Below are positions 11,596 to 21,160 of a stretch of 64,000 bases of DNA, one piece after another. A model generated the notes under the pieces. The model did no database searches and was not told where the DNA came from. It saw only the letters and a program-made list of their open reading frames with translations. Position 1 is the stretch's first letter. Each line of letters opens with the position of its first letter. Origin of the DNA: Thalassomonas haliotis (GTDB taxonomy: Bacteria > Pseudomonadota > Gammaproteobacteria > Enterobacterales > Alteromonadaceae); contig NZ_CP059693.1 in NCBI RefSeq assembly GCF_028657945.1, positions 5,332,001-5,396,000 of the forward strand, in the 5' to 3' direction. Both the position numbers and the translations under genes were made by a program.

Positions 11596-12696
11596 ATGAA
11601 CAGATTAGAACAACTACCGGTTTTATTTCTGCTGGTAGTAACATTTATGAGCATCCAGGTTATAGCAAAACCCCAAACGGTATCCGCCGATAATAAATTA
11701 TTACAATATACCGGCCGCATAGATTTCAGTGCCCCGAAAGCGCCAAAAATTTCCTGGCCCGGCACTTATATCAAGGCCAGGTTCACCGGCGATAAGTTAT
11801 CGGTATTACTCGACGATGAGTTTGGCAACAATTATTTCAATGTCTTTATCGACGAAGACTGGGATAACCCTGTGGTGATCCGGTGCAGCAAAGGGCCTAA
11901 ACCTTATGTTATCTCCCTTAAATTGCAGAAAAGGCTCAGCCAAGGCCCCCATTCCCTTATGATCAGCAAACGAACCGAAGGGGAGCAAGGCAACACTGTA
12001 TTTAAAGGATTAGTCTTGGCCGAAAACGGCAAATTACTCCCTCCGGCCCCCCGCCCTTCCCGGCGCATTGAATTTATCGGCGATTCAATCACCAGCGGCA
12101 TGGGCAATGAGGCTCCCCTGGACCAGGAAGACGGTAAGCTGGCAGAAAGAAATAACTTCCTGGCCTATGGCGCCATTACCGCACGTAACCTGGAAGCCGA
12201 ATATGTCAGCACCTCCCAAAGCGGCATCGGCATTATGGTGAGCTGGTTTGACTTTACCATGCCAAAATACTTCCTGCAGTTAAACGCCACTGGCTTAAAT
12301 GATTCCCGCTGGGACTTTAATCAATGGACTCCGGATGTGGCCGTTATAAACCTGTTTCAAAATGACCTCGCCCTGGCCGACATCCGGTTAACCCCGGTTC
12401 CCGATGATGAAGCACGCATACAAGCCTATTACCAGTTCCTTAAAACTGTCCGGGGTAAATATCCCGAGACCTTGATTATCGCCACCCTTGGCAGTATGAC
12501 TGCGGTAAAACCGGGATCGAAATGGCCGGGTTATATTGAGCAGGCAATCGCCCGGATAAAAGCAGAAACCGGCGATAAACGGCTAATGGCGATGATGTTT
12601 CCCTATACGGGTTATGACAAACATCCCAGGGTAAAACATCACAGAGAAAATGCCGCGCTGCTGACAAAATTTATCAGGCAACAAATGCGCTGGTAA
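11596..12696 (+). CDS. CE2-family acetyl esterase (SGNH hydrolase), 366 aa
   Basis: A predicted exported esterase that removes acetyl groups from mannan or other hemicellulose so mannanase can act. A signal peptide (about 1-24) is followed by a jelly-roll domain (about 35-145) and an SGNH hydrolase domain, the two-domain plan of carbohydrate esterase family 2. The catalytic Ser is Ser164 in EFIGDSITSG, the oxyanion residue is in NLFQND (Asn256), and the His is His343 in DKHPRVKHH. The last 102 bases are repeated 4 kb downstream at 16606-16707, which marks the left edge of inserted DNA. Confidence 0.85.
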   Translation: MNRLEQLPVLFLLVVTFMSIQVIAKPQTVSADNKLLQYTGRIDFSAPKAPKISWPGTYIKARFTGDKLSVLLDDEFGNNYFNVFIDEDWDNPVVIRCSKGPKPYVISLKLQKRLSQGPHSLMISKRTEGEQGNTVFKGLVLAENGKLLPPAPRPSRRIEFIGDSITSGMGNEAPLDQEDGKLAERNNFLAYGAITARNLEAEYVSTSQSGIGIMVSWFDFTMPKYFLQLNATGLNDSRWDFNQWTPDVAVINLFQNDLALADIRLTPVPDDEARIQAYYQFLKTVRGKYPETLIIATLGSMTAVKPGSKWPGYIEQAIARIKAETGDKRLMAMMFPYTGYDKHPRVKHHRENAALLTKFIRQQMRW

Positions 12697-12909
12697 ACAT
12701 CAATATCAGATAATGACAATCAACCCGTTACATTGATGCCGCTAATTTGATCATCTAATTTAGTTGATCAAGTTAGCATATTTAGTCACACTACCAAGCA
12801 GTTTAAAGTGGCATGTATTTCGTCATTATAATATCAACTCAAAACGCTTTATAGCTCGTATGGATAAGTTGATAAATGGAATTAAAAATAAGGCATCGAT
12901 GGATTGTTA

Positions 12910-14304
12910 ATGAAATGGACGTTTAAAAAAAAGCTCGCTTTTATTGCTCAACTTATACCGGTGGTATTACTTCTGGTTTTAGATCCTTTTGGGTTAACCT
13001 CTGCATTTGATAACGCCACTTCTGATGCACTAAACCGTATTAATAGCGTTGACTATTCCAGTGCCGGGCAAGATGAAATTACAGTCATATTGATCGATGA
13101 ACAATACCTGTCCTCCAACAACACTAGCTGGCCAATTAGTTATCGGGAACAGGCAAAAATTTATCGTAAAATATTGCACTATAAACCCAAGGCATTATTT
13201 TTAAACATTGCTTTTAGTCACGATCGCTCTACTGTTGATGACCCCATCAGTAAAGTTTTTAATACCTTTAAGCGCTATAAAAAAAGCCATAACACGCCTA
13301 TTTACTTAGCTGAAGTAGAATCTAAGTACAAAAATGCTCCCTTTGAATATCTTTCCGCAGTAGAGCAAAGTGTTATTAACTGGCAGGGGTTTGCATCAAA
13401 ATACCCCTTACAACTCAATAATAATGATACTGCTGCCCTATCTCTATACCGGGAATATTGTAAAAAAGAAACGAGTTGTGAGCTATTCGAGAATGGCGAC
13501 AATGCTCTTTTCGCGCCTTTAACAGTGCAGTGGGGCAGTCAAATTTCGGATAGTCAATCAAAGGAATATGACAATAGCCATTGCTACAAAAATAATTCAA
13601 ACTTTTCTTATTTGACTGACCTGATAAAAGGGGATTTATTGTGGCGCTTTCAAGAGCGGCTTTTTCAAAAATGTCCGTACACGAATACAATCATGGCATC
13701 GAGTTTAATTGGCAACGACAAGGAAGCTAACAGGTTTTTTAAAGACTTAATTAAAGACAAATTAGTACTGATTGGCACTATGATAGATAGTGCACCAGAC
13801 TTAATTAATTCCCCGGTTCACGGACAAGTTGCTGGAGTCTATTTCCATGCGATGGCATTAGATAACCTGATCACTTACGGAGAAAAATACAAGAGACAAC
13901 CACCCGATATTATTGCAAAAAACATAGGCGTCATTGATGCGATAGAAATGTTATTTGTCATTTGGGTCTTCGCCTTAAGGTATATTTTAGCGCATGGGGC
14001 CCACCCTACACATACACCTAAAAACACTGTTCAAAATAAAACAGCTGCCTACCTGTGGTTGTCTACATTTCTTATGCTCGCAATGATGAGTTACCTATCA
14101 AGTAATGTACTTCATTACCAAATGATTAATTGGGTAGGCCTGACGGCGCTGGCCTTCAGTGTCATGATCTATGGGATCAACTTCAACAAATTCTTTGAGT
14201 GGTTCAAAGGCATAATAGGGAACTTAAAAATCCTCATCATGGCACTCAACAATAAATTAAATAATCTCGAAATATTAAAAAATAACAATAAAGATCTCAG
14301 TTAA
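12910..14304 (+). CDS. CHASE2-domain membrane protein, about 464 aa
   Basis: One N-terminal membrane helix (about 11-30) is followed by a large extracytoplasmic domain with CHASE2 features: the FDNATSDALNRIN start, ITVILIDEQYL, WPISYREQAKIYRKIL and KLVLIGTMIDSAPDLINSPVHGQVAGVYFHAMALDNLI. Two or three C-terminal helices (about 345-365, 380-400, 408-425) and a short polar tail follow. No kinase or cyclase output domain is present, so any signal must pass to partners. Track-style start is TTG at 12904, but the ATG at 12910 is more likely. It is the first of three genes in the inserted segment. Confidence 0.75.
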   Translation: MKWTFKKKLAFIAQLIPVVLLLVLDPFGLTSAFDNATSDALNRINSVDYSSAGQDEITVILIDEQYLSSNNTSWPISYREQAKIYRKILHYKPKALFLNIAFSHDRSTVDDPISKVFNTFKRYKKSHNTPIYLAEVESKYKNAPFEYLSAVEQSVINWQGFASKYPLQLNNNDTAALSLYREYCKKETSCELFENGDNALFAPLTVQWGSQISDSQSKEYDNSHCYKNNSNFSYLTDLIKGDLLWRFQERLFQKCPYTNTIMASSLIGNDKEANRFFKDLIKDKLVLIGTMIDSAPDLINSPVHGQVAGVYFHAMALDNLITYGEKYKRQPPDIIAKNIGVIDAIEMLFVIWVFALRYILAHGAHPTHTPKNTVQNKTAAYLWLSTFLMLAMMSYLSSNVLHYQMINWVGLTALAFSVMIYGINFNKFFEWFKGIIGNLKILIMALNNKLNNLEILKNNNKDLS

Positions 14305-14327
14305 ACCATATAGTAAGGATAATTAGA

Positions 14328-14705
14328 ATGAAAAAATGGACATTGCCTCTGCTTACGATATTACTTAATACCCACGCTTTTGCAGAAAAAAAAGCGATAG
14401 AAATTGAGAATTATCAAATCAACCCTATAGATATTTTCGATGCTGACGGAAATCCTCTGAAAGAAGTTAATACTAAGACATTACCAAAACCTAATGTAAC
14501 GGTATTAGCCTCAAACGATGAGCTTGGTATTGTTAAAATACTAGATTTACAAGGAAAAGAAATCTGGCTTGATACTCTTGATTTAAAAATGAATATAGGA
14601 AAAACAGTCTCCCTTCCTTGTGTAAAACTAGCCATGAATTTACCTGAAGATAATACCAGAACAGGCACTTCAGGTTTTGGTTCCGCCTGTAAAAAAGGGA
14701 GCTGA
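14328..14705 (+). CDS. Small exported protein of the CHASE2/M48 module, 125 aa
   Basis: A signal peptide (MKKWTLPLLTILLNTHAFA) precedes about 105 residues. The middle (VLASNDELGIVKILDLQGKEIWLDTLDLKM) resembles a small SH3-like beta-barrel, though I cannot name a family. Two Cys (in LPCVKL and SACKKG) may form a disulfide. It sits 23 bases after the CHASE2 gene with a TAAGGA ribosome site and seven bases before the M48 lipoprotein start, so the three genes form an operon and probably work together in the periplasm. Confidence 0.6.
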   Translation: MKKWTLPLLTILLNTHAFAEKKAIEIENYQINPIDIFDADGNPLKEVNTKTLPKPNVTVLASNDELGIVKILDLQGKEIWLDTLDLKMNIGKTVSLPCVKLAMNLPEDNTRTGTSGFGSACKKGS

Positions 14706-14712
14706 AACAAGG

Positions 14713-16305
14713 ATGAATTCACTAAAACTCTCTTCTTTATCTCTGTTGCTACTATTAACAGGGTGTAAAACAGTCGATGGCATAACCAGCGCCGCCTCTA
14801 ATTTAATTGGTAATAATCTTTATGAAAATATAGAGGGTAAATATATTGATGATGAAGCTATTGAAGAATTTAAAATTAGAAAAGATGAACTAACCGGGCA
14901 AGGAGGACTCATTAGTTACTCCGGTATCCAGATACCGTTAGACCAGATAAGACAAACAAGTTTAATTCATTCACCTGAATTAACTACCTATCTACAAAAT
15001 ATAACCGATCACATTATCAAGCAGTGGCCAGGAACGCCAATCAAATCAAAAGTTGTTATTGTTAATAGCTATACTTTTGGGCCTTATGTCGATCAATTTG
15101 GTGTTATTCACGTGCCCTTGGGCATGTTAGAAAATGTTGAAAGCGAAGATGAAATTGCCAGTTTATTAAGCCATGAAGTGGGTCACATTTTATTACGGCA
15201 CCATGAAAGATCTGAAGTTGTTAAATCCCAACAGGAATATGTGAAGAATATAGCATCAACAGTCGTTGTCGTTAATACTGCAAAAAACACTAAGCTTAAT
15301 AAAGTTGGTGAAAATTACAAACTCATATACACACCAACAGAACAATCTAAAAATAATACCTCTAAAGCAGCTATCTACTCCTATTTGATTAATAGCCTTT
15401 CGGATAATGTTTGGAGCACCGCATGGGCTAGAAATCAAGAAGATGAGGCCGATTTATTAGGGCTTGATCTATTGGTTCATTCTGGATACTCCCCCAGAGC
15501 AGCTTCGCATACCTTAGACCGATTAAGTGACTTCCAAGGGAAACAGAAGAGTATTTTAAATACATTTATAGATAACAAAAAAGAAGCATTAGCCAATGCA
15601 TGGCAAGAGGGCGACATGGCTGCCCTTGGCCAGGAAGCGTCGACAACACTACTTGAGGGAACGGTTTCTCTCATCGACTCAACAACCGATTATTTAAAAA
15701 AATCACACATGTCACCTGCTGACAGAAATTTAAATTTACGTCATTACATTCGAAAAGAATATCGTTCTAAAAAAAGAAAGAGAGTCAACAAAACAACCTG
15801 GAAACAAATGAAATCCAGCCTTGCGGTAAGAAATATTTTAGAGGGATATAAATTTTCTTATCAGGCAACTAATGCCATTTCTCAATCAGAATATGCTTCA
15901 GCCAAAAAGCTATTTAGTCAATCACTTAACCCGCACACATCTAACCAACCAGCAATAAGGGAAGTGGCGTACACTCTAAATATGGCTCAGGGAAAGCCAA
16001 TCCAGGCAGAGCAACACTTAGCATTTATTGAACATTGGGGACTGGCATCCCCCAACTTTTATAAGTCTATTATTGAAGAAAAAATGAAGAAAAGTAACTT
16101 TGTTGAAGCATTAAAATATATAGAAAAAGCAGAGAAATACCTTCATAACAATGAAATGTTTATTGTTGAAAAATCAATAGCGCTTAATCAGGAATACCGT
16201 GAAGAAGATAGCATTAAATCGCTACATGAATGTACTTTATACTCAGATAAAAAAGCAACATGTGAAAATATGCTGAACAAGCTAGGAATAATAATAAATT
16301 CATAA
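14713..16305 (+). CDS. M48-family metalloprotease lipoprotein with C-terminal repeats, 530 aa
   Basis: A lipobox (LLLLTGC, Cys18) marks an envelope lipoprotein, so the ATG at 14713 is chosen over the longer frame from 14677. The zinc site is SHEVGHILLRHH (His154, Glu155, His158) and the third ligand is probably Glu in NQEDEADLLGLDLL, as in BepA/Oma1-type M48 peptidases. The C-terminal 140 residues look like TPR helices (YASAKKLFSQSL, FVEALKYIEKAEKYL), as in BepA. A terminator follows at 16331. It may process or degrade envelope proteins, possibly under control of the CHASE2 protein. Confidence 0.82.
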   Translation: MNSLKLSSLSLLLLLTGCKTVDGITSAASNLIGNNLYENIEGKYIDDEAIEEFKIRKDELTGQGGLISYSGIQIPLDQIRQTSLIHSPELTTYLQNITDHIIKQWPGTPIKSKVVIVNSYTFGPYVDQFGVIHVPLGMLENVESEDEIASLLSHEVGHILLRHHERSEVVKSQQEYVKNIASTVVVVNTAKNTKLNKVGENYKLIYTPTEQSKNNTSKAAIYSYLINSLSDNVWSTAWARNQEDEADLLGLDLLVHSGYSPRAASHTLDRLSDFQGKQKSILNTFIDNKKEALANAWQEGDMAALGQEASTTLLEGTVSLIDSTTDYLKKSHMSPADRNLNLRHYIRKEYRSKKRKRVNKTTWKQMKSSLAVRNILEGYKFSYQATNAISQSEYASAKKLFSQSLNPHTSNQPAIREVAYTLNMAQGKPIQAEQHLAFIEHWGLASPNFYKSIIEEKMKKSNFVEALKYIEKAEKYLHNNEMFIVEKSIALNQEYREEDSIKSLHECTLYSDKKATCENMLNKLGIIINS

Positions 16306-16320
16306 GCTGATATATCATTA

Positions 16321-16605
16321 TTAAAATACCCCCTGGATGGAAACATCCAGGGTTTTTAAATGGGGTTTTAGCTTGCTTAGTATCACAAATTTTTCTATGT
16401 AAAACCTTCTCCATCTAAATTGTTTTTCAGGGAGAATTGCCGGAGGAGCATAGCAACCTAAAAGAGGATAATATCTCAATGAACATTGCGGCAATTTATT
16501 ACATCCACCTAATTGTTCCAATATCACTTTAGCTAACTGTAAATCTTCAGGGTTTTGATTGTTTTTATATAAAGAAATATGGTGACTATTCAGCTCACGG
16601 CTATC
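16321..16605 (-). CDS. Possible gene fragment next to the duplicated CE2 end
   Basis: An open frame of about 95 codons (it continues antisense across the CE2 duplicate to 16695). Parts such as LQLAKVILEQLGGCNKLPQC look protein-like, but I recognise no family, and the 3' end overlaps the terminator hairpin. It may be the tail of a gene cut by the insertion or a chance frame. Confidence 0.2.
   Translation of the reverse strand, partial: DSRELNSHHISLYKNNQNPEDLQLAKVILEQLGGCNKLPQCSLRYYPLLGCYAPPAILPEKQFRWRRFYIEKFVILSKLKPHLKTLDVSIQGVF
16331..16357 (+). terminator. Intrinsic terminator of the CHASE2/M48 operon
   Basis: CCCTGGATG (16331-16339), loop GAAA, CATCCAGGG (16344-16352), then five T. It lies 26 bases after the M48 stop codon. 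Confidence 0.9.
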
Positions 16606-16707
16606 ATGTTTCCCTATACGGGTTATGACAAACACCCCAGGATAAAACATCACAGAGAAAATGCCGCGCTGCTGACAAAGTTTATCAAGAAACAAATGCG
16701 CTGGTAA
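16606..16707 (+). pseudogene. Duplicate of the last 33 codons of the CE2 esterase gene
   Basis: These 102 bases align without gaps to 12595-12696, the end of the CE2 gene including its stop codon, with five substitutions. Two are silent and the other three change Val to Ile, Arg to Lys and Gln to Lys. The conservative pattern suggests a homologous esterase allele or paralogue that evolved under selection, not random decay. With the intact gene it makes direct repeats bracketing a 3.9-kb segment. Confidence 0.9.
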
Positions 16708-16745: not shown

Positions 16746-17243
16746 TTATAACGTAGGCTGCTCAGCATTAACTTTTGGCCTTGCCTTAACTGCCGTCGCA
16801 TCAGTGCAATAACGCTGGCCATAATGCAAACAATCTATTTTCAGCTCGACACCGCCAACAAGCCTTTGCTCGTCTGGCATATCGGTTTTAACAAAGTTGA
16901 TATTTTTTTGCAAAATACGGTGAGCATCAGTCAATTGCTGATATTGCGCCGACGTGAAAACAACTTCACCCTGATTGAAAACCGGAGCCAAGCCAGCAAC
17001 CTGTTGTAGATGAAGCTTTATTTTTTGTTCAATAACCGCCTGTTCGCGCTCACTTGCCCCGCTATTTACGGCATTATTGTATTCCTGCAATAGCTGATAC
17101 GACTCATAAAAAGGCGCATCTTTGTACAGATTATCGACAACTTTTCTTTTCATTCTTTTTTCAATTAAAGAAGAAGCAATAACCACCAGCACGATGCCCG
17201 CTGCAAACAGCACAGGCAAATAATTAATAAACTGAATTTCCAT
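16746..17243 (-). CDS. Unknown single-pass membrane protein, 165 aa
   Basis: Counted from the ATG at 17243, the protein opens MEIQFINYLPVLFAAGIVLV, a membrane anchor at about residues 5-25. A basic stretch (EKRMKRK) and a soluble, partly helical domain follow. No family is recognised. The longer frame from 17390 would overlap the preceding gene heavily, so the 20-base overlap with that gene is preferred. It is the last gene of a three-gene minus-strand set with a polytopic protein and a small Gly-Gly peptide. Confidence 0.55.
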   Translation of the reverse strand: MEIQFINYLPVLFAAGIVLVVIASSLIEKRMKRKVVDNLYKDAPFYESYQLLQEYNNAVNSGASEREQAVIEQKIKLHLQQVAGLAPVFNQGEVVFTSAQYQQLTDAHRILQKNINFVKTDMPDEQRLVGGVELKIDCLHYGQRYCTDATAVKARPKVNAEQPTL

Positions 17244-17727
17244 TTCTGTTTTGAACTCCCTTAAGGCTGGCAAAAACCAAAATACCAACAATGATGTAAT
17301 TAACCGGCACGACCGTCCAGGTATACAAGTCCCAGGTCCAGTCAGGTTCATGTAACCCCATGATATTGCGCTGCCAGTGCATAAAGGCATAAAAGCAGAT
17401 ATTAACGGCCATCAGTACATAAATGGTTCTTATCGCCCTTGATGTATACCAAAGCAGCACTATATGCAAAGCCATAGAAATAATAAAAACGGCGATATAA
17501 AGATATTCAAAGGTTTGATACCAAAGGAAAACCTTATCTTCCTTTGGCAGCTCCGAATAATAACCAGTTAAAAAATGTCGTAAAACGATAGCAGCAAAAA
17601 ATAATGAGCTAAAACTGAGTATTTGTTTATTTTTATTCTTTATACTTATGAATACTGGAAACAACAACAGAGCCATAGCAGATAAGTCGCTATAATATAA
17701 AGCGTACTGCAGAAAATCACTCATCAT
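17224..17727 (-). CDS. Polytopic membrane protein, 167 aa
   Basis: No family is recognised. About five hydrophobic segments are visible: residues 12-28, 38-52, 70-90 (YLYIAVFIISMALHIVLLW), 98-114 and 138-156. The loop before the last contains several Trp. Its ATG overlaps the stop of the small peptide gene upstream (17724-17727), and its end overlaps the next gene, so all three are translationally coupled. A role in export, processing or immunity for the peptide is possible but unproven. Confidence 0.6.
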   Translation of the reverse strand: MMSDFLQYALYYSDLSAMALLLFPVFISIKNKNKQILSFSSLFFAAIVLRHFLTGYYSELPKEDKVFLWYQTFEYLYIAVFIISMALHIVLLWYTSRAIRTIYVLMAVNICFYAFMHWQRNIMGLHEPDWTWDLYTWTVVPVNYIIVGILVFASLKGVQNRNGNSVY

Positions 17728-17966
17728 TTGGGATGAATCCCATCGCTAGTAAAAAGTACAGTTTGCCCGCTTAAATCTTGATTTTCAGCTTCTTGAAGGT
17801 CTGGATTAGGTAAAATACCTGACGTGGTTTGTCCACAACCACCGGCCACTTTCATTAAATTTTGCTTATCAAGTACTTTGCCTAACAGCGGCTTTTCAGC
17901 TTGATTTTCGGGCTTAAATGAAGAGACATTAAGTTTTCGATAAAGGTTATCGCCATCTTGCTCCAT
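17724..17966 (-). CDS. Small double-glycine-type peptide, 80 aa
   Basis: The centre reads LLGKVLDKQNLMKVAGGCGQ. A Leu/Met-spaced stretch ending Val-Ala-Gly-Gly resembles the leader end of double-glycine peptides exported by C39-peptidase transporters. The segment after Gly-Gly (about 36 residues, CGQTTSGILPNPDL onward) would be the core. It has one Cys and is acidic. The leader part is longer than usual. No modifying enzyme or C39 transporter is next to it, only the two membrane-protein genes it overlaps or precedes. The peptide call is inference from the motif. Confidence 0.45.
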   Translation of the reverse strand: MEQDGDNLYRKLNVSSFKPENQAEKPLLGKVLDKQNLMKVAGGCGQTTSGILPNPDLQEAENQDLSGQTVLFTSDGIHPK

Positions 17967-17982
17967 GATGCTACAGCTCCTG

Positions 17983-18207
17983 CTATTCCATTAAGTTGGC
18001 ATTGTGCAAAACAACACGCCAGCTGTCAAATGTCTTAGTGCTCAGGATACTACCAAACAGGAAATATTCTTCCTCTGAGTTCTGCAGCTTCACCAGTTGC
18101 GTAAAACTGGCTAAGTCCTATTTGTATGCCTTAATGGTGTGTGGTGAGAGTTGTTTACCGTGTTGACAGTGAGATAAAAATTGTTCGCAAACTTCATTAT
18201 TCAGCAT
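17983..18207 (-). pseudogene. N-terminal remnant of a tyrosine recombinase/integrase
   Basis: From the ATG at 18207 the frame reads MLNNEVCEQFLSHC, then QHGKQLSPHTIKAYK, an in-frame stop (18118-18120), and DLASFTQLV. This matches the N-terminal SAM-like core-binding domain of phage-type integrases (L-S-x-x-T-x-x-A-Y-x-x-D-L-x-x-F). The rest of that domain decays and the catalytic domain is absent. It is evidence of past site-specific integration in this island. Confidence 0.7.
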
Positions 18208-18311
18208 TTATTTTTCTCTGATAATTCAATGAGGTGAGCATAATAACCTTAAAAAATAAAATGACATCTTTTAAACAAAAGAATCTTTTATTCTATAGCT
18301 GTTTGTTAGCA

Positions 18312-18354
18312 CTTGGTTTATCCTTTAACCACTTGGGTTAAAGGATAAACCAAG
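18312..18354. repeat. Perfect 19-bp hairpin upstream of the PAAR gene
   Basis: A 19-base arm (18312-18330) is followed by loop ACTTG and its exact reverse complement (18336-18354). Outer arms GTTTG (18301) and CAAAC extend the symmetry loosely. There is no T-tract. It lies between the integrase remnant and the PAAR gene and could be a structured recombination site, a terminator for leftward transcription or an mRNA leader element. Confidence 0.75.
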
Positions 18355-18434
18355 CTACAAGAAAAGTTTCAAACAGTTTAGCGCCTTCAGGCTGCTTGTA
18401 TCACAGAGTCAACTTGAAATAAGGAATGTTTCAA

Positions 18435-19331
18435 ATGGCATTACCCGCTGCAACCGCCACCCATATGCACGTTTGCCCAAAAACAACCGGCACAGTTCCC
18501 CACATTGGCGGCCCTATCGTTAGCGGCTCGCCGAATGTTTCAATTGGCAACTTACCCGCCGCCCGTATCGGTGATTCTATGGTTTGCGTTGGACCACCGG
18601 ATAAAATTACCCAAGGCTCAACCGGCGTATTCATTAATGGCAAAGGCGCAGCCCGACTGGGCGACAGCACCGCCCATGGCGGTAAAATAACAATAGGAAA
18701 TCCAACGGTATTAATTGGCGATAGCGCCGGTGCGCCTGACGCTACCTCTTCACTTCAGGCAAAAAAAGAAGGAACTTCCCTTGATAAAATGCAGGATGTA
18801 CTGCCGGCCGCATTAAAAAACAGCCGCTCGACCAGTGAAGCCCTGGGTAAGGCAGGCATGGAGCAAGCGAAAAACCGGTTAGACCTCAAAACAGATAAAA
18901 GGTATGTAGACCGTTACCACGGCCCTGATGATATATCGCAAGATAAAAGCGGCAATCTGACCGAAATAGAAGCCAAAGGAAACAACAAAAACAGCAAAGC
19001 GGTAACAGTAGATAACAAAGGGCACAAACAAAGCTCGAAAAAGAAAAACAAACGCAGGGCTGACAAAATGCTCGATCAAAAAGCCAAAAAAATTGATATC
19101 CCTTCTAAGCGCCAGGGCGGCCCCTATAACCAGGATGAAATTAATTTGTGGAATGAAATTGAACTGGATAAAGGCAATAAACGCCACTTGTCAACTCACA
19201 CCAATACAGAAAACGGCCAGGTTCTGGTGTTCGAGCGTGATGACGAGGGTGATATCATCGAGACCTTGGACGACTTTAAGATTGATGGTTTTGATGAGCT
19301 GAAACAAAACATCGGGGAGTTTTTTAAATGA
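18435..19331 (+). CDS. PAAR-domain effector with C-terminal PD-ExK-like nuclease candidate, 298 aa
   Basis: Residues about 1-95 form a PAAR repeat domain (ALPAATATHMHVCPK, then GNLPAARIGD, GAARLGD, PTVLIGD), the metal-stabilised tip that caps VgrG in type VI secretion. The C-terminal part is very Lys-rich and contains YHGPDD and TEIEAKG, a PD...ExK spacing found in restriction-type nucleases; this function is inference. The Met at 18435 is chosen because AAGGA is eight bases upstream, whereas the Met at 18426 has no room for it. Its end overlaps the immunity gene by four bases. No other T6SS gene is in the window. Confidence 0.82.
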   Translation: MALPAATATHMHVCPKTTGTVPHIGGPIVSGSPNVSIGNLPAARIGDSMVCVGPPDKITQGSTGVFINGKGAARLGDSTAHGGKITIGNPTVLIGDSAGAPDATSSLQAKKEGTSLDKMQDVLPAALKNSRSTSEALGKAGMEQAKNRLDLKTDKRYVDRYHGPDDISQDKSGNLTEIEAKGNNKNSKAVTVDNKGHKQSSKKKNKRRADKMLDQKAKKIDIPSKRQGGPYNQDEINLWNEIELDKGNKRHLSTHTNTENGQVLVFERDDEGDIIETLDDFKIDGFDELKQNIGEFFK

Positions 19332-20176
19332 ATACACCAGAACAGGAGCAAATAGCTCATTGGCTGTCCACATCAATGGAAAATATAAGAGCCACTGAAC
19401 AGGCCCTAAGCGATGGCTATTACCTCCAAAAAAAAATTTCCCTGCAAAGTGTTTATACCGGTACGGCATCAGATTACGCACGTCTTGCCCGGGCCAAGTT
19501 CCTCAATGACGAGACTCTGGCCTCGGTCCGGCACGAGTTTAATACTGCGGCGCTTTGTATCAATAAAAGCTTTAGCATGGCTTACGATGTAAGTGATGCT
19601 GATTATGTAGGCGACAAACTGCCCCCTGAAAAGGCCTCCCAAACTCCCTGGGGCTGTGTCAGCTGGTCTGATGTTAGTGAAACAGATGGCATTGACGGTT
19701 TTAACTTTGCCCTTATGGCGGCAAATATCGATACTGCGAAAAGATTGGCAAATTTATTTCAAGACCGTAAAAACGGGAAAAAAATGTTTCCCTGCATCAA
19801 CCGTTACGCACATGCCCTAAAACATGCACTTTTACAGGAGCAAGTACAGGGCCTGGCTTTATTAAAACCAACGCTCGATACCTTTACCGCCAAACCGCCC
19901 AAACAGGGTTATAAGATTAACTACCTTAACTTAAGTCTTACCTTATCTGGAATCCTCTCCGGTGATGAAGCACTATTTAACCAAGGGTTAGAGCAAATAT
20001 TAAACTTCTACAAAAAGGTGATGATCCCCGCGGATGATTATTGGGATACAGCCTACGAGTTCATCTGTGACGATGCCGTTGCTTTAGCCAACCTGGGGCT
20101 GAGTTATAACCTTGAGGTAACCATAGATCATGAGCTTTTACCCAAACGACTGCTTGCTTATCCGTCAAGTACATGA
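19328..20176 (+). CDS. Probable immunity protein for the PAAR effector, 282 aa
   Basis: The gene starts inside the effector stop (ATGA), the usual layout of effector-immunity pairs. The protein is soluble and mostly helical with no signal peptide, so it would act in the cytoplasm, consistent with a nuclease toxin. The C-terminal part (DDYWDTAYEFICDDAVALANLGL) resembles Imm49-type immunity proteins, in which a late Asp-Ala-Val-Ala-Leu-Ala-Asn block is common. The family name is tentative, but the role is well supported by position. Confidence 0.65.
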   Translation: MNTPEQEQIAHWLSTSMENIRATEQALSDGYYLQKKISLQSVYTGTASDYARLARAKFLNDETLASVRHEFNTAALCINKSFSMAYDVSDADYVGDKLPPEKASQTPWGCVSWSDVSETDGIDGFNFALMAANIDTAKRLANLFQDRKNGKKMFPCINRYAHALKHALLQEQVQGLALLKPTLDTFTAKPPKQGYKINYLNLSLTLSGILSGDEALFNQGLEQILNFYKKVMIPADDYWDTAYEFICDDAVALANLGLSYNLEVTIDHELLPKRLLAYPSST

Positions 20177-20390
20177 GTATTTAAGTAAGTACACGGCAAC
20201 CGAGTACGGGTAATATTTGCGTAATGCCGACTCATCTTAGTGGATACAGGGAACACTTATCCATGTATTTACAAAATAAATAAGGGTAATGTCTCTCATA
20301 TTTTATCTCACTCACCTCCTGTTCCCTGTCGCTTGACAGGATACACCTCTGTGCTAGTATCAATAGCATAACAACGAAGGAATAGCTGGC

Positions 20391-20678
20391 TTGATAATAA
20401 ATTTTAACTCCAGTGTATTAGAAAAGTTGTGGACTACGGGTGACATTAGCCTATTACCTAGTGCCTATGTGCATGAAGTAGTAGAGATACTAACCATTAT
20501 GGATGCAGCAGAAAAAGCCACTGATTTAGCACTGCTCGGAGGGTTCAAGATAGATGAATATGCCCCTGACAATTGGGCTGTCACTATCACAGTTAACAGC
20601 GTTGAACCCGTAGGCAGCATTACTTGTTATTTTACCCGTGGCAATGCTCACGATGTAGACTTAAATGTATATGATTAG
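20391..20678 (+). CDS. higB: HigB-type toxin (RelE/ParE superfamily), 95 aa
   Basis: A small toxin expected to cleave mRNA at the ribosome. It has the HigB order: LEKLWTTGD near the N-terminus, a helix with MDAAEKATDLALLGGFK, NWAVTITV, then ITCYFTRGNAHDVDLNVYD, which matches the F-x-x-G-x-A-x-D-V-D end of the family. The start is TTG at 20391, or translation begins further in. The antitoxin gene follows 11 bases later. It probably stabilises the island. Confidence 0.82.
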   Translation: MIINFNSSVLEKLWTTGDISLLPSAYVHEVVEILTIMDAAEKATDLALLGGFKIDEYAPDNWAVTITVNSVEPVGSITCYFTRGNAHDVDLNVYD

Positions 20679-20689
20679 GGGTTAAGATT

Positions 20690-20995
20690 ATGGCTTTAGT
20701 CAGAAGTAATCAGTTACCAGTGACCCATGCTGGAATTATCTTTAAAAAACGTATTCTGGAGCGCCACAACATAACTGTCTCAGATGCAGCAAAACTAATG
20801 CATATTGGCAGACCTCATTTATCTAAATTCGCAAGTGGTAAGGTCGCAGTAACGGCTCCTTTAGCAATGAAGCTTGAAAAAAGCACGGGGATCTCTGCCG
20901 GCTTCTGGATGAATATTCAGAAATCCTATGATTTGTATATACATCGAGATTTAGAAATTGAGGCCGAACCTTTGCCTATGGTGGCCACTGGCTAA
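20690..20995 (+). CDS. higA: HigA-type antitoxin (XRE family), 101 aa
   Basis: A helix-turn-helix antitoxin of the HigA/VapI group. THAGIIFKKRILERHNITVSDAAKLM is the family's N-terminal part, then HIGRPHLSKFASGK is the recognition helix region, and LEKSTGISAGFWMNIQKSYDL is the conserved C-terminal block (x-x-x-FW-x-x-x-Q-x-x-YDL). It follows the toxin gene, the usual higBA order, and would repress its own promoter upstream of 20391. Confidence 0.9.
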   Translation: MALVRSNQLPVTHAGIIFKKRILERHNITVSDAAKLMHIGRPHLSKFASGKVAVTAPLAMKLEKSTGISAGFWMNIQKSYDLYIHRDLEIEAEPLPMVATG

Positions 20996-21131: not shown

Positions 21132-21160
21132 ACGGCCCGGATAATTTTTATCCGGGCCGT
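21132..21160 (-). terminator. Strong hairpin after the symporter/dehydrogenase operon
   Basis: A 13-bp perfect stem (ACGGCCCGGATAA, 21132-21144, with 21148-21160) lies 27 bases beyond the TIM-barrel gene stop. The following T-run is short on the minus strand. Confidence 0.7.

What the first reader, a model, noticed from the sequence alone, without database searches (positions are those of the whole stretch)
12595..16707. 3.9-kb insert bracketed by a 102-bp duplicate of the CE2 gene 3' end
12595-12696 and 16606-16707 match without gaps at 97 of 102 bases, both ending at the stop codon. The second copy carries only the last 33 codons. Two changes are silent and three are conservative, so it came from a functional relative, not simple decay. 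Integrating elements that target a gene 3' end leave exactly this pattern, as does unequal recombination with a paralogue. The insert carries the CHASE2/M48 operon.
Basis: partly seen in the sequence, partly recalled or inferred. Interest (0 to 1): 0.7.

Follow-up and report, generated by a model that had tools for sequence, protein, structure and literature searches.

The report
Stranded gene end between acquired genes
A sugar-esterase gene in a marine bacterium has a second, stranded copy of its last 115 bases about 4 kb away, most likely a scar left where foreign genes were slotted in behind it by ordinary recombination; the region also holds the dead end of a DNA-recombining enzyme gene.

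Summary
The repeat is real: 97 of 102 bases (106 of 115 from 12582/16593), the only repeat of 60 bp or more found in the window. Two of the three other held Thalassomonas species have one complete CE2, no second copy and no insert; the third has no CE2. A decayed paralogue is unlikely.

The repeats do not mark the ends of one element. DNA not shared with the nearest relative runs from 12.7 to 20.3 kb and is a mosaic: a patchy CHASE2/SH3-like/M48 operon, the CE2 stub, two minus-strand genes, a dead recombinase fragment, a PAAR protein and its partner. No integrase was found between the repeats.

The CE2 3' part (12331-12668) and HigB (20365-20667), which border the block, are the two most G002-like stretches in 18 kb. 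This points to exchange by homologous recombination at the borders, with another CE2 end stranded at an illegitimate join; the order of events is open.

The dead fragment belongs to recombinases that sit beside inverted sites overlapping the starts of swappable cargo genes, the most novel lead.

The parts
11596..12696 (+). CE2 acetylesterase gene, full length, orthologous to G002/G003; its last 115 bp (12582-12696) are copy 1
   Evidence: Pfam CE2_N E 1.7e-28; 90% aa identity to G002 and G003
12331..12668 (+). G002-like stretch in the CE2 3' part (2 differences in 338 bp; 83 in the 735 bp just upstream), read as a recombination tract
12697..12736 (+). Copy-1 3' flank; shares 13 of 14 bases (ATCAACCC(R)TTACA) with the CE2 3' flank of G002 and G003
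   Evidence: local alignment score reached by 20 and 12 of 3000 shuffles; global score reached by 374 and 516
12904..14304 (+). CHASE2-domain membrane protein, first gene of a patchy three-gene operon
   Evidence: Pfam CHASE2 E 5.2e-21; 6 of 295 family genomes, this one included
14328..14705 (+). Small protein, probably exported, with a predicted SH3-like beta core
   Evidence: adjacent homologue in 5 of 5 other operons; AlphaFold residues 31-90 confident, tail not; weak SH3-type fold hits, none with E below 0.001
14713..16305 (+). M48 zinc-metalloprotease, probable lipoprotein, BepA/LoiP-like
   Evidence: Pfam M48 E 6.8e-13; NCBIfam BepA and LoiP matches far below cut-off; HExxH and Cys18 invariant in 6 of 6
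16591..16707 (+). Copy 2: stranded 3' end of a different CE2 allele (stub)
16746..17243 (-). Minus-strand gene A, with a homologue beside a gene-B homologue elsewhere in each of the four genus genomes
17224..17727 (-). Minus-strand gene B, overlapping gene A
18080..18337 (-). Relic: about the first 43 codons (in-frame stop at codon 30) and upstream region of a tyrosine recombinase gene that is intact in G001 and G003
   Evidence: 84-85% DNA identity; Pfam Phage_integrase on the intact homologues
18313..18353 (.). Hairpin with perfect 18-bp arms, partly inside the relic region
   Evidence: z -7.5
18426..19331 (+). PAAR-domain protein, likely T6SS effector
   Evidence: Pfam PAAR E 8.3e-23; 68% aa homologue with its partner in G001
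19328..20176 (+). Putative immunity gene (Imm49 match below the curated cut-off)
20365..20667 (+). G002-like stretch over the HigB-like gene at the right edge of the block (2 differences in 303 bp)
20391..20995 (+). HigB-like toxin (match below cut-off) and HTH antitoxin, shared with G002, missing from the corresponding G003 interval

Best explanation
The DNA behind CE2 is a variable slot refilled by recombination between strains. Incoming DNA pairs with the conserved CE2 3' end (left anchor) and with HigBA or the next conserved gene (right anchor). At least one join was not homologous: a piece that began as 'CE2 3' end plus CHASE2 operon' was fused at 16590/16591 to the last ~117 bp of another CE2 allele, which stayed behind as a stub with its own downstream DNA (minus-strand genes, recombinase relic, PAAR/immunity pair). 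The preferred order, inferred and not shown, is that copy 2 is the older CE2 end of this lineage and the present 3' end of the full gene came with the insert. Shown: single-copy relatives, extent of the block, mosaic content, G002-like edges, allele differences. Inferred: order, donor and the anchored-plus-illegitimate join.
For: G002 and G003 carry one CE2 and no insert. The block 12.7-20.3 kb is absent from this place in both. The two most G002-like stretches in 18,189 aligned bases lie at the two block edges, 12331-12668 and 20365-20667; 0 of 4000 block shuffles reproduced both at each of four block sizes (test chosen after seeing the pattern). Copy 2 keeps between-species distance to every allele (9, 9, 11 of 115) while copy 1 is 2 of 115 from G002, and in the 117 bp compared copy 2 has the G003 base at 3 sites where copy 1 has the G002 base. 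The 16590/16591 junction is abrupt. The CHASE2 operon is patchy (6 of 295 genomes) and has no direct repeats around it in 4 of 5 other sites. G+C is 32-41% in 12.5-18.5 kb against 43-51% in 16 of the 18 other 500-bp windows from 9 to 24 kb.
Against: The G002-like tract ends at 12668, 28 bp before the stop, and the flank after copy 1 is only locally like G002 (global alignment not significant), so tract and insert may be separate events. Taken singly, neither low-divergence segment exceeds 90-bp block shuffles (95% limit 17.8; observed 14.0 and 12.2), and only the first just exceeds 30-bp block shuffles (limit 13.8). The flank after copy 2 shows no similarity to relatives, so it cannot be shown to be native. 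One base (12688 C) is shared by the two copies only. Only four species of the genus, and no second strain of this species, were available; no donor was found.
Confidence: 0.55

Rival explanations
1. The whole block from 12331 to about 20667, stub included, was imported in one piece from a strain with G002-like edges by a double crossover; the stub arose earlier in the donor lineage.
For: Both edges are G002-like; a single double crossover explains both.
Against: G002 itself has a SymE-like segment there instead, so a donor with G002-like edges and this block must be assumed; 12669-12736 is not G002-like.
Confidence: 0.2
2. Partial duplication or unequal recombination with a second CE2 gene that has since been lost or decayed.
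For: The stub stays in frame and differs by few, mostly mild changes; one base (12688 C) is shared by the two copies only.
Against: One CE2 match each in G002 and G003 and none in G001; CE2 similarity of copy 2 stops abruptly at 16591.
Confidence: 0.12
3. Site-specific integration of an element into the CE2 3' end, the repeats being attL and attR, with the integrase now lost.
For: Direct repeats ending at a stop codon, and empty sites in relatives; a recombinase relic lies 1.4 kb beyond copy 2.
Against: No recombinase family on the frames scanned between the repeats; the intact homologues of the relic sit beside inverted 22-26-bp sites unrelated to CE2, and that site is absent from the window with up to 3 mismatches; the CHASE2 operon elsewhere lacks direct repeats in 4 of 5 places.
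Confidence: 0.08
4. Misassembly placed a CE2 fragment there.
For: None found.
Against: Single 6.45-Mb contig; copy 2 is a distinct allele, not an identical copy.
Confidence: 0.03

Closest known systems
Anchored displacement by homology-facilitated illegitimate recombination (proposed for Vibrio cholerae T6SS effector/immunity arrays, PMC5361080)
   Same: One homologous anchor, one non-homologous join, a displaced 3' end of the old gene kept behind the new cargo, repeated at one address; [quoted passage not shown]
   Different: Here the anchor is a carbohydrate-esterase gene, not a T6SS gene, and the cargo directly behind it is a CHASE2/M48 operon; a PAAR/immunity pair is present further on.
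Genomic islands integrated at gene 3' ends (recalled, no call)
   Same: Direct repeat of a gene 3' end around foreign DNA.
   Different: No integrase found between the repeats; foreign-looking tract reaches upstream of the repeat; no other CE2 found occupied in this way.
BepA/LoiP-type M48 envelope proteases (NCBIfam)
   Same: M48 domain, HExxH, N-terminal cysteine as in a lipoprotein.
   Different: Scores far below the family cut-offs (50.8 against 570; 44.4 against 365); beside CHASE2 and an SH3-like protein in 5 of the 5 other loci examined.

Membership tests
Element integrated site-specifically into a gene 3' end | Direct repeats of the gene 3' end at both ends | tested here: met
   106 of 115
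Element integrated site-specifically into a gene 3' end | Integrase gene inside the bracketed DNA | tested here: not met
   No recombinase family on the four frames scanned between the repeats; a ~43-codon relic lies outside, at 18080-18207
Element integrated site-specifically into a gene 3' end | Exchange confined to the repeated core | tested here: inconclusive
   G002-like tract begins at 12331, 250 bp upstream of the repeat, but may be a separate event
Element integrated site-specifically into a gene 3' end | Native flank follows the distal copy | tested here: inconclusive
   Flank 2 unlike G002/G003 flanks; flank 1 shares 13 of 14 bases with them
Element integrated site-specifically into a gene 3' end | Excised circular form | not testable with these tools
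   needs PCR or reads
Anchored illegitimate recombination scar | Relatives with one copy and no insert | tested here: met
   G002 and G003, 2 of the 3 other held species of the genus; the third (G001) has no CE2 match
Anchored illegitimate recombination scar | Homologous anchor at the edges | tested here: met
   low-divergence tracts at both edges; singly not beyond 90-bp block shuffles
Anchored illegitimate recombination scar | Abrupt non-homologous join and displaced 3' stub | tested here: met
   16590/16591
Anchored illegitimate recombination scar | Donor genome with the same junctions (supporting, not defining) | tested here: inconclusive
   none in 4 genus genomes, in 295 family genomes searched with CE2 or in genome contigs; few relatives are held
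Decayed complete CE2 paralogue | Complete second gene in a relative | tested here: not met
   one CE2 match each in G002 and G003, none in G001

The most novel reading that the evidence does not exclude
The relic at 18080-18337 is the dead end of a unit from an undescribed natural cassette switch. A tyrosine recombinase flips, and over time exchanges, a cassette of two converging genes or gene sets. The ~22-26-bp inverted recombination sites carry a ribosome-binding-site-like AGGA and mostly the start codon (AGGAATTATG) of the cargo genes, so any cassette dropped in is read from one of two ends. Cargo includes SIR2-NACHT and CHAT proteins of the kind found in phage defence. The slot behind CE2 lies in the interval where G001 still has an intact unit.
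Probability: 0.4. Interest if true: 0.75.

Novelty: new member of a known kind. Interest (0 to 1): 0.35.

Why it matters
As a scar, it is a readable record of how accessory genes can be stacked behind a conserved gene without a dedicated integrase, outside the T6SS loci where the process was proposed. It also warns that a gene-end repeat alone does not prove an integrating element. The side lead matters more: the same slot holds the remains of a recombinase unit. If its intact relatives flip and exchange defence-like cassettes through sites that overlap the start codon, that would be a natural counterpart of recombinase-mediated cassette exchange, and it can be tested directly by PCR. The start of the abstract of PMC12529663, seen in a search listing, says that recombinases are often found next to anti-phage genes and that their function in phage defence is unknown.

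Tried and rejected
Decayed paralogue: judged unlikely, no second CE2 in relatives. Phage or plasmid origin of the block: by distant blastn, no phage match and only two PAAR matches on Pseudoalteromonas plasmids. The 89-residue minus-strand frame at 16324-16590 gave no match in plasmids; the longer 124-residue frame gave none in Pfam, NCBIfam or PHROGs. One PHROG match of the M48 protein is labelled HNH endonuclease (E 5.6e-6); it covers the M48 region and I take it for a label problem. tRNA or Rfam RNA genes as integration target: none in the window. Known defence families in the block: no PADLOC hit at E up to 0.01 for 9 proteins. A donor CE2 with the copy-2 sequence: not found; genome contigs returned only G003 (Thalassomonas sp. 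RHCl1) at 89% and two distant genes at 55% and 48%. Recombination site of the relic's relatives in the window: none with up to 3 mismatches. Recombinase relatives in viral contigs: 8 loci, best 26% over most of the protein, 55% only over 40 residues. Literature, all from listings (title and start of abstract) except passages of PMC5361080: no paper holds the words CHASE2, M48 and operon together; five searches around recombinase switches, cassette exchange and defence (15 of 16, 10 of 15, 5 of 5, 15 of 26 and 10 of 51 papers listed) and one on anchored recombination listed no paper that visibly describes the recombinase unit. The library lacks bioRxiv preprints and most subscription papers, so this is weak evidence of novelty. 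The order of events (copy 2 older, or copy 2 imported) could not be settled.
Full report
Observation. The two stretches match at 97 of 102 bases, and the match extends 13 bases further 5' (106 of 115). It is the only repeat of 60 bp or more that the repeat finder gives for the window. The genome, one 6.45-Mb contig, gives only these two CE2 matches.

Relatives. Four genomes of the genus are held. One of them, G003, has a contig of the same length as a record of Thalassomonas sp. RHCl1 found, so the genus is Thalassomonas. G002 and G003 have one complete CE2 each (90% aa identity) and no insert; G001 has no CE2 match. In G002 homology stops at the CE2 stop codon and resumes at window 20298; in G003 it resumes at 21151. 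In between they carry 0.6-0.7 kb with a SymE-like gene (Pfam and NCBIfam on the G002 copy). The insert relative to G002 is therefore about 7.6 kb, and the repeats enclose only its first half.

Content of the block. 12904-16305 is an operon of a CHASE2 membrane protein, a small protein and an M48 protease. The same three genes in the same order occur in 5 other genomes among 295 of the family (6 with this one); M48 proteases in general are found in 284 of 295. In 369 genomes drawn from the class, the CHASE2 protein has matches in 5 others at 26-34% identity; their neighbourhoods were not examined. The protease keeps Cys18 and HExxH in 6 of 6. The small protein is predicted to have an SH3-like beta core (mean pLDDT above 90 over residues 31-90, tail unreliable), but fold matches are weak (best E 0.006, none below 0.001). 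A periplasmic sensor, adaptor and protease module is the natural guess; its function was not tested. Behind the stub come two minus-strand genes with a homologous pair elsewhere in each of the four genus genomes, a recombinase relic, and a PAAR protein with a partner gene whose pair in G001 is 68% and 70% identical. G+C is 32-41% across 12.5-18.5 kb, against 43-51% in 16 of the 18 other windows from 9 to 24 kb.

Which copy is which. Copy 1 differs from G002 at 2 of 115 bases and from G003 at 8. Copy 2 differs from copy 1, G002 and G003 at 9, 9 and 11. Over 117 bp, copy 2 has the G003 base at 3 sites where copy 1 has the G002 base; 6 changes are unique to copy 2, one is unique to copy 1, and one base is shared by the two copies only. 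The CE2 gene is 83 of 735 bases different from G002 up to 12330 and then 2 of 338 (12331-12668), while G003 has 18 differences in that stretch. So the 3' part of the full gene looks overwritten by G002-like DNA, whereas copy 2 has the distance expected of a separate lineage.

Edges. Scoring 18,189 aligned bases against G002 for unusually low divergence, the best segment is 12331-12668 and the second is 20365-20667, over the HigB-like gene: one on each side of the block. Taken singly, neither exceeds shuffles in 90-bp blocks, and only the first just exceeds the 95% limit for 30-bp blocks. Their joint position at both edges was reproduced by 0 of 4000 shuffles at each of four block sizes, and by 4 of 728 rotations, which include the real one and its near neighbours. 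I chose this test after seeing the pattern. The likely meaning is that the slot was exchanged through its conserved borders.

Mechanism. The anatomy fits anchored insertion: homologous pairing in CE2 on one side and a non-homologous join at 16590/16591 on the other, leaving the last ~117 bp of a CE2 allele as a stub. [quoted passage not shown] An integrase-made bracket is less likely: no integrase found inside; around the operon elsewhere there is no direct repeat of 35 bp or more in 4 of 5 regions (in the fifth, G276, repeats are frequent and one 40-nt family lies on both sides); and the G002-like tract reaches 250 bp upstream of the repeat. Against my reading: the tract stops 28 bp before the stop codon, flank 1 resembles the relatives only over 14 bases (local score reached by 20 and 12 of 3000 shuffles; the global score by 374 and 516), and flank 2 resembles nothing. 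The order of events therefore remains open.

Wider setting. L104 of G001 is the same chromosomal interval: its left part matches G000 at 5291077-5292860 and its right part matches window 31091 onward. There G001 has a SymE-like gene and an intact recombinase unit within about 5 kb, where the window's genome has about 70 kb including the CE2 cluster.

Side lead. 18080-18337 is the start of a tyrosine recombinase gene with an in-frame stop after codon 29; homology ends at about codon 43. Intact homologues in G003 and G001 sit next to a 26-bp sequence that occurs as a perfect inverted pair in G003. A 22-base core with up to 2 mismatches is found in 8 of 295 family genomes, 15 places; the reversed control pattern shows none in the table. 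A recombinase borders a site in 8 of 8 of these genomes; in G246 it lies on a contig that begins with the site, and in G001 and G099 the recombinase-side site is degenerate. Seven recombinases align at 46-91% identity with the residues I recall as catalytic conserved. Of 16 cassette ends, the longest frame starts at the ATG of the site in 10, about four bases further in 5, and much further in one (read; frames are mechanical ORFs). Cargo differs: SIR2-NACHT with a PLP decarboxylase, CHAT-EamA, AAA with carbamoyltransferase, PAP2 and others; PADLOC matched CHAT and SIR2 models, weakly SspA on the decarboxylase, and nothing in the AAA, ATP-grasp or carbamoyltransferase proteins. Two genomes of one genus, G282 and G258, have the unit behind the same genes (they look like an ABC exporter, recalled) with different cargo. 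In G246 and G258 the cassette is a contig of its own running from site to site, as expected if both orientations exist in the culture; reads were not available to prove it.

Noticed in passing
window 18080-18337; intact relatives L103:1964-6496, L104:3571-6843, L142, L143/L145, L146, L147, L148, L141/L162: Relic of a tyrosine recombinase whose intact homologues border cargo genes lying between inverted 22-26-bp sites that overlap the RBS and, in 10 of 16 ends, hold the start codon; cargo differs between genomes and includes SIR2-NACHT and CHAT proteins; in two assemblies the cassette forms its own contig.
   Followed up: partly
window 12904-16305; L097-L101: CHASE2 / SH3-like / M48 three-gene operon, patchy (6 of 295 family genomes) and with different neighbouring genes in the five other genomes examined; no paper in the library holds CHASE2, M48 and operon together.
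   Followed up: partly
L104:2154-2686; G000, G002, G003 genome-wide: A SymE-like segment is a dispersed repeat with tens of matches in each of these Thalassomonas genomes (40 candidates scored per genome).
   Followed up: no
window 17724-17966, minus strand: 80-residue reading frame whose stop overlaps the start of gene B, with a KVAGGCGQ stretch that recalls a double-glycine leader of a secreted peptide (frame read; motif recalled).
   Followed up: no
window 18313-18353: Inverted repeat with perfect 18-bp arms (folding z -7.5), next to the recombinase relic; role unknown.
   Followed up: no
L149 positions 1-18 (IMG/VR contig): A viral-collection stretch begins exactly at the recombinase site, as some bacterial contigs do; no recombinase match in it.
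   Followed up: no
L101:12577-13274: Exact 300-bp duplication 398 bp apart just downstream of the CHASE2 operon in G276.
   Followed up: no
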